From positions 2,046,001 to 2,110,000 of the forward strand of contig NZ_CP040792.1 of assembly GCF_021952865.1 (NCBI RefSeq): DNA of 64,000 nt, given 5' to 3'. The position numbers and the translations under genes are program-made. Origin of the DNA: Clavibacter californiensis (GTDB taxonomy: Bacteria; Actinomycetota; Actinomycetes; Actinomycetales; Microbacteriaceae). Of this stretch, positions 49,152 through 55,453 are shown in pieces (within the stretch, counting starts at the first letter, position 1; each line of letters begins with the position of its first letter). Under the pieces are notes generated by a model that did no database searches, was not told the DNA's origin, and was given only the letters and a program-made list of their open reading frames with translations.

Positions 49152-50999
49152 GTGAGCCCCCTAGCTTCGAAGGCCCTCCGGCCCGCCGCGACCGACCCCG
49201 CGTCCATCCGCAACTTCTGCATCATCGCCCACATCGACCACGGCAAGTCCACGCTGGCCGACCGCATGCTGCAGATGACGGGCGTCGTCGACTCGCGCTC
49301 CATGCGCGCCCAGTACCTCGACCGCATGGACATCGAGCGCGAGCGCGGCATCACGATCAAGAGCCAGGCCGTCCGCATGCCGTGGGAGCTCGACGGGCGG
49401 ACGTACGCCCTGAACATGATCGACACCCCGGGCCACGTCGACTTCTCGTACGAGGTCTCCCGCTCGCTCGCCGCGTGCGAGGGCGCCATCCTCCTGGTCG
49501 ACGCCGCGCAGGGCATCGAGGCGCAGACCCTCGCGAACCTCTACCTGGCGCTCGAGAACGACCTCACGATCATCCCGGTGCTCAACAAGATCGACCTGCC
49601 GGCGGCGGATCCCGACAAGTACGCGGCCGAGCTCGCCTCGCTCATCGGCGGCGACCCGTCCGACGTGCTGCGCGTCTCCGGCAAGACGGGCGCCGGCGTC
49701 GAGGACCTGTTGGACCGCGTCTCCCGCACCATCCCCGCGCCCGTCGGCGACCCGGACGCCGCCGCCCGCGCCATGATCTTCGACTCCGTCTACGACGCCT
49801 ACCGCGGCGTGGTCACCTACGTCCGCATGATCGACGGCAAGCTCAGCCCGCGCGAGAAGATCTCGATGATGTCGACGCGCGCCACGCACGAGATCCTGGA
49901 GATCGGCGTCAGCTCGCCGGAGCCCACGCCCTCGGACGGGCTCGGCGTCGGCGAGGTCGGGTACCTCATCACGGGCGTGAAGGACGTGCGCCAGTCCAAG
50001 GTCGGCGACACCGTCACCACCGCGGCGCGCCCGGCCACCGAGGCCCTCCCCGGCTACACCGAGCCGCTGCCGATGGTGTTCTCGGGCCTGTACCCCATCG
50101 ACGGGTCCGACTACCCCGACCTCCGCGACGCCCTCGACAAGCTCAAGCTGTCGGACGCCGCGCTCGTCTACGAGCCCGAGACGTCCGTCGCCCTCGGGTT
50201 CGGCTTCCGCTGCGGCTTCCTCGGCCTCCTGCACCTCGAGATCATCACCGAGCGCCTCTCCCGCGAGTTCGGGCTCGACCTCATCACGACCGCGCCCAGC
50301 GTGATCTACGAGGTCACCAGCGAGGACAAGAAGACCGTCACCGTCACCAACCCGAGCGAGTTCCCGGGCGGCAAGATCGTCAGCGTCTCCGAGCCCGTGG
50401 TGAAGGCCGCGATCCTCGCGCCCAAGGACTACGTCGGCACGATCATGGAGCTCTGCCAGTCGCGGCGCGGGGTCCTGCTCGGCATGGAGTACCTCGGCGA
50501 GGACCGGGTGGAGATCCGCTACACGATGCCGCTCGGCGAGATCGTGTTCGACTTCTTCGACAACCTCAAGAGCAAGACGGCCGGCTACGCGTCGCTCGAC
50601 TACGAGCCCGCGGGCTCGCAGGACTCCGACCTCGTGAAGGTCGACATCCTCCTGCAGGGCGAGCAGGTCGACGCGTTCAGCGCCATCGTCCACCGCGACA
50701 AGGCCTACGCATACGGCGTGCTGATGACGGGCCGCCTCCGCGAGCTCATCCCGCGCCAGCAGTTCGAGGTGCCGATCCAGGCGGCCATCGGCGCGCGGAT
50801 CATCGCCCGCGAGTCCATCCGCGCCATGCGGAAGGACGTGCTCGCGAAGTGCTACGGCGGCGACATCACCCGCAAGCGCAAGCTGCTCGAGAAGCAGAAG
50901 GAGGGCAAGAAGCGCATGAAGATGGTCGGCCGCGTCGAGGTCCCCCAGGAGGCGTTCATCGCCGCGCTCTCGGGCGACACTGAGAAGAAGGCCAAGTAG
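49152..50999 (+). CDS. lepA: Elongation factor 4 (LepA), translational GTPase
   Basis: A 615-residue GTPase that acts on stalled or mispositioned ribosomes. G1 is [19 protein letters not shown], switch [13 protein letters not shown], and G4 LNKIDLPAA. The C-terminal LepA-specific domain includes [23 protein letters not shown]. The start is GTG 49152, behind TAAGGAA. Followed by a very strong terminator. In the usual order hemW comes next; here six genes intervene. Confidence 0.97.
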
Positions 51000-51016
51000 C
51001 CCCCCCCGCATGGACG

Positions 51017-51050
51017 AAGCGCCCCCTGCCTCGTGAGGCAGGGGGCGCTT
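51017..51050. terminator. Strong bidirectional terminator after lepA
   Basis: A perfect 15-bp stem: AAGCGCCCCCTGCCT (51017-51031) pairs with 51036-51050 across a CGTG loop, ending in TT. It also faces the 3' end of the secreted-protein cluster. Confidence 0.93.
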
Positions 51051-51070
51051 CCGCGTCCAGTGGCGGATGA

Positions 51071-51895
51071 TCAGCAGCGGGCGGGAGCCGGCCGGCCAGC
51101 GGTGACCCACTGCGAGTAGGTCATCTTCATGCCGTCCGGCGCCGCGTATCCGCGGTAGGTGATGTCGGACGATCCGGCGGCCTGGCAGTAGCGGTCGCCG
51201 GGGAACGACGCCACGACCTGCGGCGTCGGGAACGCGAAGGCGGCCCACTCGTCGTACGTCAGCACGTCGCCGCTCGCGTTGTCCGGGATCTCCCACACGA
51301 TCGCCGGGCTCCACGCCAGCTTCCGCATGTACATGTCGGCGAAGGGGTAGTTGTCCGCGACGGTCTCCGTCAGCTCGGGGGAACCGAGCCGGACGTACTC
51401 GGCGTAGGTCAGCTTGTGCGTGGTCGACAACGGCCCGCCGTCGCGCAGGAGCAGATCCGTGTCCACGAACACCTCCGGGGAGGAGCCGAATCGGAACGCG
51501 TAGCCGGACTCCGGCAGGGAGTTCGTGACGGGTCGCGGAGAGCCGACCCGCTGCCACTCGGCGAAGGTGAGGCGCGTCGCCTCGGGACGGTCGTCGTCTC
51601 CGAACCGGAGGTCCGCGAGCACGTCCGCGGACCAGGAGTACCCGTGGTACGACACCCCGGCGGGACGCGGCGCCGGGAATCCGTCCCCCTGCCACTGCGC
51701 GTAGGTGGCCGTGGTGATGAAGGTCTGGTTCTGGTCCGTGAGCGCCTCGACGCGCACGAGATCGGCGCGGAACGGCAGCGAGTAGTACGTGACGGTGCTC
51801 GTGTCGTCGACGGCGCCGCTGGCGGGAGCAGCTGCGGCGGCACCCCCGACGAGCAGTGTGCCGACGAGGGCGAGGGCAGCGAGTGGTCGGTGCAT
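51071..51895 (-). CDS. Secreted repeat protein, paralogue D
   Basis: A 274-residue protein I do not recognise. Residues 1-28 are a signal peptide (ALALVGTLLVGGAAAAAPASGA). The mature part has five copies of a core [LM]-T-[YF]-x-[EQ]-[WY]-x3-[GA]-x-P: at about 64-76, 109-122, 162-175, 212-225 and 258-271, spaced 45-53 residues, with aromatic-rich beta-like linkers (VSYHGYSWSADVLADL; RKLAWSPAIVW). Only two Cys, at 237 and the last residue 274, probably form a disulfide closing the final repeat. There is no anchor or catalytic motif. It is the last and most divergent of four tandem paralogues, 59 bases after the previous one. ATG 51895 follows GAAGGAG. Confidence 0.75.
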   Translation of the reverse strand: MHRPLAALALVGTLLVGGAAAAAPASGAVDDTSTVTYYSLPFRADLVRVEALTDQNQTFITTATYAQWQGDGFPAPRPAGVSYHGYSWSADVLADLRFGDDDRPEATRLTFAEWQRVGSPRPVTNSLPESGYAFRFGSSPEVFVDTDLLLRDGGPLSTTHKLTYAEYVRLGSPELTETVADNYPFADMYMRKLAWSPAIVWEIPDNASGDVLTYDEWAAFAFPTPQVVASFPGDRYCQAAGSSDITYRGYAAPDGMKMTYSQWVTAGRPAPARC

Positions 51896-51954
51896 GGTGC
51901 GGGCTCCTTCGGGAGGCGTCGGATGGGAGGGACGGAGAAGAGCAGGCGCCGCGG

Positions 51955-52740
51955 TCAGCAACGTGCAGGAGGAGGGGACCCGGCGTCACGCCACTGGCCG
52001 AAGCTCAGCTGCGCGCCGCGAGGAGCGGCATCCCCGAAGTAGTGGATGTCCGCGGAGCCCGGCGCCTGGCAGAAGCGGTCTCCCGGGAACGACGCCACGA
52101 CCTGCGGTGCCGGACGGGCGTAGTAGTCCCACACGGCGAAGTCCATGACGCCGACCTCGCCCGTGAAGTCCTTCGGTCCGACGATGGCGGGGTACCACGC
52201 GAGCTTCCGGAACTCGGTCTCCAGGACGCGGTCCACGGGCGGAGAGCCGATGCTCGCGTACTCCCGGTAGGTGAGCTTGTGGAAGCCCGGCTCGTCGGTG
52301 AACGAGGCGCCCTCGATGACGAAGAGCTCGTCGGATCCGTCGTATCGGATGACCTCGTGCTGGTAGGCGAGCTGGTCGCTGCGTGGTGCCGGCTGGCCCG
52401 CGTGCGTCCACCGGTCGAAGTCGAGCATGCGCGTGGAGGTGAAGGGGCCGAACGTCTCGTCCGCCCAGATCGTGGGCTCCCACGTGTAGCCGATGTAGGC
52501 GACCTTCGCGGGGACGGGCGTCGGGAACCCGTCGGCCCGCCACTCGTCGAACGTGGCGCCGTAGGAGTCGAGCGAGGTGTCGCCCGGCCGGACGGCCATG
52601 AGCCGGTCGTCGAACGGGTTCGAGTAGTACACGACGGTGCCGGTGGTCGCCGCGGTGGCTGAGGCCGACGGGAGGGCCACGATCGTGCCGCCGAGCAGCA
52701 GTGCCGCTGCGGTGACGAGGGCGGGGAGTGAACGGTTCAT
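51955..52740 (-). CDS. Secreted repeat protein, paralogue C
   Basis: A 261-residue paralogue. The signal peptide is ALVTAAALLLGGTIVALPSASATA (cleavage near 30). Repeat cores lie at 62-75, 106-119, 156-167, 199-212 and 245-258; the linkers keep AYIGYTWEPTIWAD, EFRKLAWYPAIVGP and QVVASFPGDRFCQA. Cysteines are at 224 and 261 only. The repeats of one protein are less alike than the same-numbered repeats of different paralogues, so the five-repeat unit was duplicated as a whole. ATG 52740; 36 bases separate it from the preceding paralogue. The function is unknown; possible surface or wall binding is inference. Confidence 0.75.
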   Translation of the reverse strand: MNRSLPALVTAAALLLGGTIVALPSASATAATTGTVVYYSNPFDDRLMAVRPGDTSLDSYGATFDEWRADGFPTPVPAKVAYIGYTWEPTIWADETFGPFTSTRMLDFDRWTHAGQPAPRSDQLAYQHEVIRYDGSDELFVIEGASFTDEPGFHKLTYREYASIGSPPVDRVLETEFRKLAWYPAIVGPKDFTGEVGVMDFAVWDYYARPAPQVVASFPGDRFCQAPGSADIHYFGDAAPRGAQLSFGQWRDAGSPPPARC

Positions 52741-52776
52741 GGTCTGGCTCTCTAGGGGTTCGCGGTGGGAAGGGGA

Positions 52777-53550
52777 TCAGCAGCGGGTGGGGGCCGGTGA
52801 GCCGGCCTCGAGCCACTGGCCGTACGAGAGCTTCACGCCCTGCGGGGCGGCGATGCCGACGTAGCGGATGTCGGCGGAACCCGCGGCCTTGCAGAAGCGG
52901 TCGCCGTCGAACGACTTCACGATCTGCGGGGTCGGCTTGCCCCAGTACTCCCACGTCCAGAAGTCGATCGCCACGACCTCGTAGGAGGGCACGGTCGGTC
53001 CCACGATCGCCGGGAGCCAGGAGAGCTTGCGGAAGCCGCCCTCACGCACGTCCGAGGACGGGTAGCCCAGTGCCGCGTACTCGGCGAAGGTCAGCTTGTG
53101 GTTGACCGGGACGTCGTCCCCGAAGCTGAAGACGAAGACGAAGAGCTCGTCCGAGTACGAGTACTTGAAGACGCCGGCGTTGACGGGCAGCACGTTCTTC
53201 GTCGGCTTCGGCGAGCCCGCGGCGCTCCACTGCGAGTACGTCAGGCCGAGCGTCGATGCAGCCCCCGGCTCCGTCTGGATGTCGGCGTAGACGTCGTCCG
53301 TCCAGGTGAAGCCGCGGTAGGAGATGGTCGCCGCGACGGGCTGCGGGAAGCCGTCGGCCTTCCAGTCGGCGAAGTACGCCGGCGTGGCGTACTTCTCGCC
53401 CCCGGTCGCATCGGTGACGTAGAGGTCGCCGTTGAACGGGACCGAGTAATAGGTGCTGTGCTTGGGCGCGGCCTGTGCGGGGGCGGCGACGAGCGCTCCA
53501 CCCAGGGCGAGGGCGCCTGCGAGGACGAGGGCGGGGATCGAGCGGTTCAC
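52777..53550 (-). CDS. Secreted repeat protein, paralogue B
   Basis: A 257-residue paralogue. The signal peptide ends near AQA at 27. Repeat cores lie at about 58-71, 103-116, 152-164, 195-208 and 240-253; Cys at 220 and 257. It lacks the Trp in repeat 3 (AEYAALGYP) and has an aromatic FVFVFSF insertion at about 137. GTG 53550 follows GGAAGG, as in paralogue A; an in-frame ATG nine codons earlier is possible. Its 3' part is almost identical in DNA to that of paralogue A. Confidence 0.75.
   Translation of the reverse strand: MNRSIPALVLAGALALGGALVAAPAQAAPKHSTYYSVPFNGDLYVTDATGGEKYATPAYFADWKADGFPQPVAATISYRGFTWTDDVYADIQTEPGAASTLGLTYSQWSAAGSPKPTKNVLPVNAGVFKYSYSDELFVFVFSFGDDVPVNHKLTFAEYAALGYPSSDVREGGFRKLSWLPAIVGPTVPSYEVVAIDFWTWEYWGKPTPQIVKSFDGDRFCKAAGSADIRYVGIAAPQGVKLSYGQWLEAGSPAPTRC
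52847..52932 (-). repeat. Near-identical 86-base segment, copy in paralogue B
   Basis: It matches 53704-53789 with three differences by eye, whereas the 5' halves of the two genes are much more divergent. It encodes the fourth linker and the first conserved Cys. Confidence 0.8.
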
Positions 53551-53633
53551 GGTGGCCTTCCGAGGCGATGGGGTCATGGGGTGGGAGGTGGAGAAGAGGA
53601 GGGCGGGCAGCCGGTCGGCTGCCCGCCCGGGGA

Positions 53634-54407
53634 TCAGCAGCGTGCGGGAGCGGGGAAGCCGGCCTCGCGCCACTGCGCGTAGCTGAGCTTCGCGCCCTTC
53701 GGCGCGGCGATGCCGACGTAGCGGATGTCGGCGGAGCCCGCGGCCTTGCAGAACCTGTCGCCGTCGAACGACTTCACGATCTGCGGGGTGGGACGGGCGA
53801 AGTAGTCCCACTCGTCGAGCGTCAGCGCGGCGACCTCGCCGGTCTGCGGGGTCGGGCCGACGATCGCGGGGAACCACGCCAGCTTGCTGAAGACCGAGTC
53901 GGACACCTGGTCGACCGCGGGGGAGCCGAGGTGCGCCCACTCGCGGTAGGTCAGCTTGTGGAGTCCGGGATCCTCCTCGAGGTACGTCCCCTCCACGAGG
54001 TACAGCTCGTCGGAGTAGGCGTACTTGATGACCGCCGCCTCCGCCGTCAGGGTGTCGTCGGAGGGCTTGGGGGAGCCGACGCTCGCGTACTGGTCGTACG
54101 TCAGGCGGAGCGTCGTGGCCGCGCCCTCGAGGACGACGTCCGCGTAGACGGCCGGCGACCACGTGTACTTGTGGTAATCGACCTCGGCGGCGACCGGACG
54201 CGGGAAGCCCGCGGCAGCCCACTCGTCGTAGGTCACGTACTCGACCTCGAAGCCGTCGGCGCCCTCGACGTCACGGAACAGCGTCTGGTCGAACGGGACG
54301 GAGTACACGGTGCCGTCGCCGGGGGTCGCCTGCGCCGGTGTGGCGACGAGGGCGCTGCCGAGCACGAGGGCTCCGGCGATGACGAGGGCGGGAGTGGAGC
54401 GGTTCAC
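53634..54407 (-). CDS. Secreted repeat protein, paralogue A (first of the cluster)
   Basis: A 257-residue paralogue, first in transcription order. The signal peptide is ALVIAGALVLGSALVATPAQA (cleavage near 27). Repeat cores lie at 58-71 (VTYDEWAAAGFPRP), 102-115, 152-164, 195-208 and 240-253 (LSYAQWREAGFPAP); Cys at 220 and 257. No anchor, enzyme motif or metal site is visible. GTG 54407 follows GGAAGG. The mature protein is weakly acidic and rich in Trp and Tyr. The cluster lies between lepA and hemW, which are adjacent in many actinobacteria, so it looks acquired or lineage-specific. Confidence 0.75.
   Translation of the reverse strand: MNRSTPALVIAGALVLGSALVATPAQATPGDGTVYSVPFDQTLFRDVEGADGFEVEYVTYDEWAAAGFPRPVAAEVDYHKYTWSPAVYADVVLEGAATTLRLTYDQYASVGSPKPSDDTLTAEAAVIKYAYSDELYLVEGTYLEEDPGLHKLTYREWAHLGSPAVDQVSDSVFSKLAWFPAIVGPTPQTGEVAALTLDEWDYFARPTPQIVKSFDGDRFCKAAGSADIRYVGIAAPKGAKLSYAQWREAGFPAPARC
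53704..53789 (-). repeat. Near-identical 86-base segment, copy in paralogue A
   Basis: Partner of 52847-52932. The local identity suggests recent gene conversion or recombination between paralogues. Confidence 0.8.
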
Positions 54408-54686: not shown

Positions 54687-54786
54687 AGGGGCGCCGAACG
54701 GACCCCAGAGCGGGGGTGACGCGGCTTCGAGGCGCAGCGGGCGCCCTCGTCTCGGGCCCGCGCCGGAGCCTCGCAGCCCCACGCCG

Positions 54787-54792
54787 TAGTCT
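54787..54792 (+). promoter_or_regulatory. -10 element (TAGTCT) of a probable leaderless promoter
   Basis: TAGTCT lies seven bases before ATG 54800. Confidence 0.55.
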
Positions 54793-54799
54793 GATCCGC

Positions 54800-55453
54800 A
54801 TGCGCCGCAGCACCTACACCGCGACCGCCGTCACCTACGGCTCCGTCGGCGGCACCCAGGCCGTCGACCTCATGACCTACCCGCCGGAGGGGTACCGTCC
54901 CGCGGAGGCCAGCGCCCGGCTCGGCAGCGGCGACGAGCGCTTCGAGCAGGCCGTCGCCCTCCTCATGACGTGGGGCGTGCAGCGCGGCAGCGGGATCGAG
55001 GTCACCCGCATCGAGCAGGAGGTCCCCGACGACCCCGGCTACCAGGGGCTGGAGTTCGACGAGGACGGGGTGCCCCAGGTGCCCGTCGACCGACCGCGGG
55101 AGACGCTGTACGGCGACGACGGCACCGCGTGGATCACGTCGGGCACCTCGGCGGTGCTCCGGATGCCGTTCGGCCCGTTCCATCCCGAGGCGCCGGTCCG
55201 CGTCGTGTACACCGTGCAGGAGACCGACCGCGTCGGCTTCGCCTACGGCACGGTGCACGGTCACCCGCTGAGCGGCGAGGAGGCGTTCCTCGTCTCCCGG
55301 GAGCCCGACGGCAGCGTCTGGCTCACCCTCCGCGTCTTCTCGCGACCCGCGTCCTGGCCGATGCGCCTGGCGAGCCCGGTCCTGCGCATCGTGCAGGGCG
55401 TGTTCATGCGCCGGTACCTGCGGTCGCTGCACCCGTCGGTCGCGTCCGCCTGA
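54800..55453 (+). CDS. DUF1990 family protein
   Basis: A 217-residue protein. TYPPEGYRPAEASARLGSGDERFEQAVALLMTWGVQRGSGI is the DUF1990 N-terminal half, and VVYTVQETDRVGFAYGTVHGHPLSGEEAFLVSRE its C-terminal half. The function is unknown in bacteria; the fold is probably a lipocalin- or START-like beta barrel. There is no signal peptide. ATG 54800 is preferred over 54716 because of the -10 spacing and because the domain starts soon after it. Confidence 0.85.
   Translation: MRRSTYTATAVTYGSVGGTQAVDLMTYPPEGYRPAEASARLGSGDERFEQAVALLMTWGVQRGSGIEVTRIEQEVPDDPGYQGLEFDEDGVPQVPVDRPRETLYGDDGTAWITSGTSAVLRMPFGPFHPEAPVRVVYTVQETDRVGFAYGTVHGHPLSGEEAFLVSREPDGSVWLTLRVFSRPASWPMRLASPVLRIVQGVFMRRYLRSLHPSVASA

What the first reader, a model, noticed from the sequence alone, without database searches (positions are those of the whole stretch)
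51071..54407. Tandem family of four secreted, cysteine-closed pentarepeat proteins
Four adjacent reverse-strand genes encode signal-peptide proteins of 257-274 residues. Each has five spaced copies of a [LM]-T-[YF]-x-[EQ]-[WY]-x3-[GA]-x-P-x-P core, aromatic-rich linkers conserved by position, and exactly two cysteines, about 36 residues apart, the second always the final residue. There is no catalytic motif, lipobox, LPXTG or membrane anchor. I know no named domain with this pattern. Tandem expansion of small secreted proteins in a probably plant-associated actinobacterium suggests surface interaction, host contact, wall binding or competition, all inference.
Basis: partly seen in the sequence, partly recalled or inferred. 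Interest (0 to 1): 0.78.

Follow-up and report, generated by a model that had tools for sequence, protein, structure and literature searches.

The report
Secreted five-repeat wall-binding protein array
A plant-associated bacterium carries a row of four related secreted proteins, each built from the same five-part module with two cysteines at its end, and relatives of that module are attached to cell-wall enzymes elsewhere, so the row is probably a changeable set of proteins that coat the bacterial wall.

Summary
Four adjacent reverse-strand genes (51071-54407) encode secreted proteins of 257, 257, 261 and 274 residues, each a five-repeat module with two cysteines 37 positions apart, the second being the last residue. 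No Pfam, NCBIfam or PDB family was found. In other actinobacteria the module is fused to M23, VanY, Rpf-type transglycosylase, SpoIID, CAP, Excalibur, deacetylase and GH71 domains, so non-catalytic binding of cell-wall or other glycan is likeliest. Of 62 full-length modules 42 have both cysteines, 20 neither, none one alone. In Clavibacter the array lies beside a DUF1990 gene in 13 of 18 genomes; four of the five without it have an LPXTG surface protein, seen at that site in three. Repeat 5 is homogenised between neighbouring genes while repeats 1-4 diverge. I judge it an unnamed module of a known functional kind, with an unusual mosaic array.

The parts
53634..54407 (-). Array gene 1: secreted five-repeat protein, 257 aa, Cys220/Cys257
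   Evidence: 63-71% DNA identity to CASJ009 over most of its length
53601..53628 (.). Perfect 13-bp inverted repeat between genes 1 and 2 (possible hairpin)
   Evidence: no T run, one search lists no terminator
52777..53550 (-). Array gene 2: secreted five-repeat protein, 257 aa, Cys220/Cys257; 3' part nearly identical to gene 1
51955..52740 (-). Array gene 3: secreted five-repeat protein, 261 aa, Cys224/Cys261
   Evidence: 99-100% DNA identity to CASJ009 over most of it
51071..51895 (-). Array gene 4: secreted five-repeat protein, 274 aa, Cys237/Cys274
51016..51051 (.). Perfect 17-bp inverted repeat between gene 4 and lepA (possible hairpin between the two converging units)
   Evidence: one search lists no terminator
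49152..50999 (+). lepA (elongation factor 4), flank of the locus
   Evidence: ORF; query; name recalled from the sequence, no family search made
54716..55453 (+). DUF1990 protein, flank of the locus
   Evidence: PF09348 E 5.8e-44; found in 18 of 18 Clavibacter genomes

Best explanation
Each gene makes a secreted, non-catalytic, five-repeat module that binds a glycan of the bacterial envelope, most likely peptidoglycan or a wall polysaccharide, through its conserved aromatic residues. In a number of relatives the module is joined to a wall enzyme and would target it to its substrate; in the array it is released alone and stays on the producer's own wall. A disulfide between the cysteine in repeat 5 and the C-terminal cysteine closes the last repeat. 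The array works as a set of exchangeable surface proteins: repeat 5 is kept alike by gene conversion, repeats 1-4 differ between neighbours, and genes are swapped between strains. Shown: secretion signals by sequence, five repeats, fusion partners, cysteine co-occurrence, locus variability, homogenised repeat 5. Inferred: binding, ligand, disulfide, fold, location on the wall, any benefit of diversity.
For: Fusions of the module: M23 (L024 80.8 bits; L092 96.3 bits), VanY (L096 134.5 bits; L102 26.7 bits, cut-off 25), Transglycosylas (L100 81.1 bits), SpoIID (L066 84.1 bits), polysaccharide deacetylase (L090 103.7 bits), CAP (L012; L095), GH71 (L029), Excalibur above cut-off (L028). Of the nine catalytic partners scanned, six act on peptidoglycan by family (seven with the deacetylase). 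In G394 the SpoIID protein with three such repeats lies convergent to an Amidase_2 protein with LGFP repeats. Cysteines: 42 both, 20 neither, 0 single of 62 full-length modules; all 42 proteins end in Cys. Near-invariant W, G, P positions in 42 homologues. Repeat 5 identity 0.63 against 0.40-0.44 for repeats 1-4 in 21 array proteins. DNA identity of different gene types within v between genomes: repeat 5 0.736 v 0.685, repeats 1-4 0.571 v 0.565; 0 of 2000 label shuffles reach the repeat-5 difference. dN/dS 0.11-0.50 in 25 orthologous pairs, so the genes are under constraint.
Against: No binding data and no structure. Mature proteins are acidic, pI 4.45-5.02 with cleavage sites set by eye, which does not suit simple charge attraction to anionic wall polymers. 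Some partners are not wall enzymes: a reprolysin-like protease (L097, just above cut-off), the Rv1352/Rv1906c domain on the window genome's own fifth paralogue (L030), a cyclotransferase-like tail seen by eye in L147. GH71 could mean binding of foreign alpha-glucan. The clasp is not universal: of the 20 modules without the pair, five are standalone proteins and one (L012) ends its protein; and L013, a four-repeat relative left out of the 62, has both cysteines but ends in Cys-Ser. Comparison with wall-binding LGFP repeats is weak. The label shuffles ignore shared descent.
Confidence: 0.55

Rival explanations
1. Adhesins or lectins for a foreign surface: the modules bind plant or fungal glycans and the array is a set of host-contact proteins.
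For: GH71 fusion (GH71 as alpha-1,3-glucanase is recalled); the same genomic site holds an LPXTG surface protein in three other Clavibacter genomes; gene swapping.
Against: Six of nine catalytic fusion partners scanned act on bacterial peptidoglycan; the proteins carry no recognisable anchor by eye, so an adhesin would still need a wall-binding step; the family occurs outside Clavibacter.
Confidence: 0.2
2. Shielding or scavenging proteins that bind wall fragments and hide them from plant receptors or hydrolases, in the manner of fungal LysM effectors.
For: Standalone secreted modules whose relatives sit on wall enzymes; diversification with a conserved end repeat. Plants respond to peptidoglycan and fungal LysM proteins block chitin sensing (starts of abstracts of PMC4103680 and PMC8003243 in the listing; papers not read).
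Against: No direct evidence. Standalone modules also stand in a row in G899, of another family of the order, with no plant link known here; dN/dS shows no overall positive selection.
Confidence: 0.12
3. Secreted toxins or bacteriocin-like competitors.
For: Tandem, variable, secreted genes.
Against: No gene lies between the four (gaps of 36-83 bp from the coordinates), so no immunity partner inside the array; no toxin family hit in Pfam or NCBIfam; module is an accessory of wall enzymes elsewhere. PADLOC was not searched.
Confidence: 0.05

Closest known systems
LGFP repeats (PF08310), for example the five-copy C-terminal domain of Corynebacterium glutamicum MytA
   Same: Tandem aromatic-containing repeats of about 45-54 residues with a W...G segment and a Gly-x-Pro turn; accessory to envelope enzymes; MytA repeats interact with peptidoglycan-arabinogalactan and the LGFP domains of GH70 enzymes have a predicted disulfide (passages of PMC11299179).
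   Different: No LGFP hit in 42 homologues nor in the window's genome; hhalign probability 8%; here five repeats form one fixed module with a single C-terminal Cys pair.
DUF5648 (PF18885), the (beta3alpha)3 domain
   Same: About 45-residue aromatic-rich repeats, accessory to extracellular enzymes (passages of PMC11299179).
   Different: No Pfam hit; seven DUF5648 units score no better than their shuffles with the merged repeat profile.
LysM, SH3b, choline-binding and Cpl-7 repeats (recalled, general wall-binding modules)
   Same: Non-catalytic repeated modules joined to wall hydrolases.
   Different: None of them appears among the Pfam matches of the window proteins or the 42 homologues.

Membership tests
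LGFP repeat (PF08310) | Match to the Pfam model at its cut-off | tested here: not met
   No LGFP hit in 4 window proteins or 42 homologues; 0 matches in the window's genome while the control rang in C. glutamicum
LGFP repeat (PF08310) | Leu-Gly-Phe-Pro motif | tested here: inconclusive
   [GA]-x-P is present in 20 of 20 window repeats; LG[SY]P occurs in repeat 3 of genes 1, 2 and 4, but the full motif is not conserved
LGFP repeat (PF08310) | Profile similarity beyond chance | tested here: inconclusive
   Local hhalign: single repeat 13.7, above all 60 column shuffles, probability 8%; two repeats, 5 of 60 shuffles reach the score; whole module, 3 of 60. In global mode 0 of 60 in all three, with only short or end pieces aligned. 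12 of 25 LGFP units scored with the merged profile: 2 to 56 of 200 shuffles reach them
LGFP repeat (PF08310) | Stalk-like fold and wall binding | not testable with these tools
DUF5648 (PF18885) | Sequence match | tested here: not met
   No Pfam hit; 0 in the window's genome. Seven units: 50 to 191 of 200 shuffles reach them with the merged profile; over five single-repeat profiles the best of 35 combinations are 4, 6 and 8 of 200
Cell-wall-binding accessory module (functional kind) | Recurrent fusion to several unrelated wall enzymes | tested here: met
   M23, VanY, Transglycosylas, SpoIID, polysaccharide deacetylase
Cell-wall-binding accessory module (functional kind) | Measured binding to wall | not testable with these tools
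   Needs protein

The most novel reading that the evidence does not exclude
A bacterial counterpart of LysM effectors: a tandem array of free, wall-binding modules that coats the producer's wall and soaks up its fragments. Repeat 5 with its cysteine clasp is the constant anchor, kept alike by gene conversion, and repeats 1-4 are a reshuffled outer face, at a chromosomal site where Clavibacter species exchange one kind of surface protein for another.
Probability: 0.15. Interest if true: 0.8.

Novelty: new variant of a known kind. Interest (0 to 1): 0.55.

Why it matters
A recurrent accessory module of wall-remodelling enzymes in actinobacteria has no entry that the Pfam and NCBIfam copies held here recognise, so such enzymes are only half annotated. 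The Clavibacter array links that module to a variable surface-protein site in a genus of crop pathogens, and it is a clean case of gene conversion acting on one repeat of a multi-repeat protein.

Tried and rejected
LGFP membership: not met by Pfam, inconclusive by profile. DUF5648: rejected. Mobile origin: the Actinophytocola module has no match in plasmids or phages at 1e-5; the window proteins themselves were not searched there. Solved structures: no match by profile at E up to 10. Secretome papers: PMC5217389 (passages and its section 3.2 with Table 1) lists unnamed secreted proteins of C. michiganensis by CMM tag, but I could not map the array to those tags; PMC7839047 (passages) gave nothing. 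Other papers: PMC11299179 (passages), PMC2447325 (one passage of the abstract). Listings showed no title naming this module; only part of each hit list is shown and only papers under the stated licences are held, so absence from print is not claimed. A first regex count of cysteines left 12 of 58 frames unscored and was replaced by the alignment count, which takes 62 full-length modules from 72 distinct matching frames; partial ones were dropped. Promoter and terminator scan: none found. My recollection of MytA repeats as a ring was wrong; the paper says stalk. G303 and the named record CASJ009 have identical array proteins and are one genome for my purposes; the four G303 genes were dropped (36 of 40 genes kept). 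Confidence in the best explanation was lowered from 0.60 to 0.55 on rechecking, because six of nine, not nearly all, catalytic partners act on peptidoglycan and because six modules end a protein without the Cys pair.
Full report
WHAT IS THERE. Four reverse-strand genes lie head to tail between lepA (49152-50999, +) and a DUF1990 gene (54716-55453, +; PF09348), with gaps of 83, 36 and 59 bp. They encode 257, 257, 261 and 274 residues; genes 2, 3 and 4 are 57, 51 and 43% identical to gene 1. By eye each begins with a Sec-type signal peptide. With cleavage sites set by eye, mature pI is 4.45-5.02 and W+Y+F content 13.9-16.5%; there are exactly two cysteines, 37 positions apart, the second being the last residue. 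A perfect 17-bp inverted repeat separates gene 4 from lepA and a perfect 13-bp one separates genes 1 and 2; the promoter and terminator scan found nothing.

FIVE REPEATS. From 72 distinct frames that match the family profile I aligned 62 full-length modules, kept 44 below 80% identity and cut them into five repeats of 42.5-48.5 residues on average. In 18 of 20 cross pairs a repeat profile scores 34-44 of 44 members of another repeat above the 99th percentile of shuffles; repeat 5 on repeat 4 gives 29 and repeat 3 on repeat 4 gives 18. The consensus is roughly YxKYxWSPxIYxV - loop - hkLTYxEWxxaGxPxP.

NO NAMED FAMILY. The four proteins have no significant hit in Pfam or NCBIfam; in PHROGs gene 4 has two weak matches of unknown function (E 0.0079 and 0.045) over its N-terminal part. 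Scanning 42 homologues, the families matched by most members were DUF7422 in Pfam (3 of 42, best E 1.6) and LpxF in NCBIfam (4 of 42, best E 0.041); the best single match was DUF7857 in 1 of 42 at E 0.0024, and one fusion protein, L096, matched DUF7857 below its cut-off at E 0.019. The profiles found no PDB sequence at E up to 10.

RELATIVES AND WHAT THEY ARE JOINED TO. Genomes with a match, the window's own included: 10 of 299 of the family, 13 of 18 of the genus, 6 of 297 of the order, 2 of 396 of the phylum; 2 of 24 in the family of G899. In some searches only part of the first-look candidates was scored, so these are lower bounds. Named records are Clavibacter michiganensis CASJ009, Actinophytocola oryzae and Antribacter soli. 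Outside the arrays the module is often one part of a larger secreted protein. Partners above Pfam cut-offs: CAP (L012, L095), M23 (L024, L092), Excalibur (L028), GH71 (L029), SpoIID (L066), polysaccharide deacetylase (L090), VanY (L096, L102), Transglycosylas (L100), Reprolysin_5 (L097, 27.8 against 27). NCBIfam NF053833 (Rv1352/Rv1906c) is on L032 and on the window genome's fifth paralogue, L030. Excalibur matches below cut-off are on L020 and L034; L093 had no hit. L031, L037, L052 and L147 were judged by eye only. One accessory module shared by several unrelated wall enzymes is the usual mark of a targeting module (established knowledge); this is the main ground for the wall-binding reading.

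CYSTEINE CLASP. Of 62 full-length modules 42 have both cysteines, 20 neither and none only one; all 42 proteins end in Cys. In the 44 non-redundant ones the figures are 27, 17 and 0. By my reading the 20 without the pair are 15 fused modules and five standalone ones (L089 twice, L091, L098, L104). A disulfide that closes repeat 5 explains the co-occurrence; it is inferred. Against a simple rule that the clasp is used wherever no domain follows: those five, the CAP protein L012 whose module ends the protein, and L013, a four-repeat relative outside the 62, with both cysteines but a final Ser.

A VARIABLE SITE. In all 13 Clavibacter genomes with the array it lies next to the DUF1990 gene (positions; one search finds an array gene in the DUF1990 locus of all 13), with one to five genes. 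Of the five without it, G302 has, between lepA and DUF1990, a secreted protein with an LPVTG-type end; G109 and G305 have relatives of it beside DUF1990 ending in LPMTG. Its only Pfam match, CarboxypepD_reg, is below cut-off; two similar segments were seen by eye. G300 has one on another contig, with DUF1990 near a contig edge. G259 has DUF1990 almost directly beside lepA. Strong matches to that LPXTG protein occur in 4 of 18 genomes, all among the five without the array; two weak matches (E 1.2e-4 in G307 and 5.9e-4 in G299, which have arrays) lie elsewhere. Shared descent was not controlled for.

RECOMBINATION. Compared with CASJ009 in steps of 150 columns, the window is 95-100% identical through genes 3 and 4, 79-85% over most of gene 2, 63-71% over most of gene 1 (83% at its 3' end), and 77-95% over DUF1990 and beyond. 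The step from about 84 to 95-100% falls in the 3' part of gene 2, at repeat 5. Within the window, genes 1 and 2 are 96% identical in the last 25-codon step compared, 77% in the first and 57-66% in the eight between; over all of repeat 5 they are 88% identical. The tree of 40 array proteins shows several old types shared in different sets by different genomes. Among 584 pairs of different types, repeat 5 is more alike within than between genomes (0.736 v 0.685; 0 of 2000 label shuffles, which ignore shared descent), while repeats 1-4 are not (0.571 v 0.565). Repeat 5 is the most conserved repeat in 21 array proteins (0.63 v 0.40-0.44) but not in 12 fused ones (0.48; others 0.35-0.52). dN/dS of 25 orthologous pairs is 0.11-0.50: constrained, with no overall positive selection.

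COMPARISON WITH KNOWN FAMILIES. The nearest known kind is the LGFP repeat. From passages of PMC11299179: about 54 residues, helix plus three- or four-stranded sheet, five copies in MytA, interaction with peptidoglycan-arabinogalactan. Sequence membership was not met by Pfam and inconclusive by profile. It may work like LGFP without being LGFP. DUF5648 was tested and rejected.

VERDICT. A real, constrained, unnamed five-repeat module; most likely a wall- or glycan-binding accessory that Clavibacter has expanded as standalone proteins. G899, in another family, has four standalone modules beside a VanY fusion. Function, ligand and fold remain to be shown.

Noticed in passing
L118:169-1296 (-), L117:1-1380 (-), L123:2333-3694 (+): At the same site beside DUF1990, three Clavibacter genomes without the array hold an LPXTG-type surface protein; strong matches (4 of 18 genomes) are confined to genomes without the array.
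   Followed up: partly
L030:1258-2388 (-) (window genome, C1 about 3101131): Fifth paralogue with a Pro/Thr-rich linker, the five-repeat module and an Rv1352/Rv1906c domain (NF053833).
   Followed up: partly
L087 and L066 (genome G394): An amidase with LGFP repeats lies convergent to a SpoIID protein carrying three copies of the present repeat, as if two repeat kinds serve one enzyme pair.
   Followed up: partly
L089, L098, L103, L105 (genome G899): Four standalone modules in a row in another family of the order, one of them with the Cys pair, beside a VanY fusion (L096).
   Followed up: partly
L047 (genome G299): One array gene copy appears split over two reading frames; described only.
   Followed up: no
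L029:1339-3456 (+): Module with a partial repeat set joined through an Ala-Pro linker to a GH71 domain.
   Followed up: no
L123 (genome G305): The DUF1990 match contains one in-frame TAG; described only.
   Followed up: no
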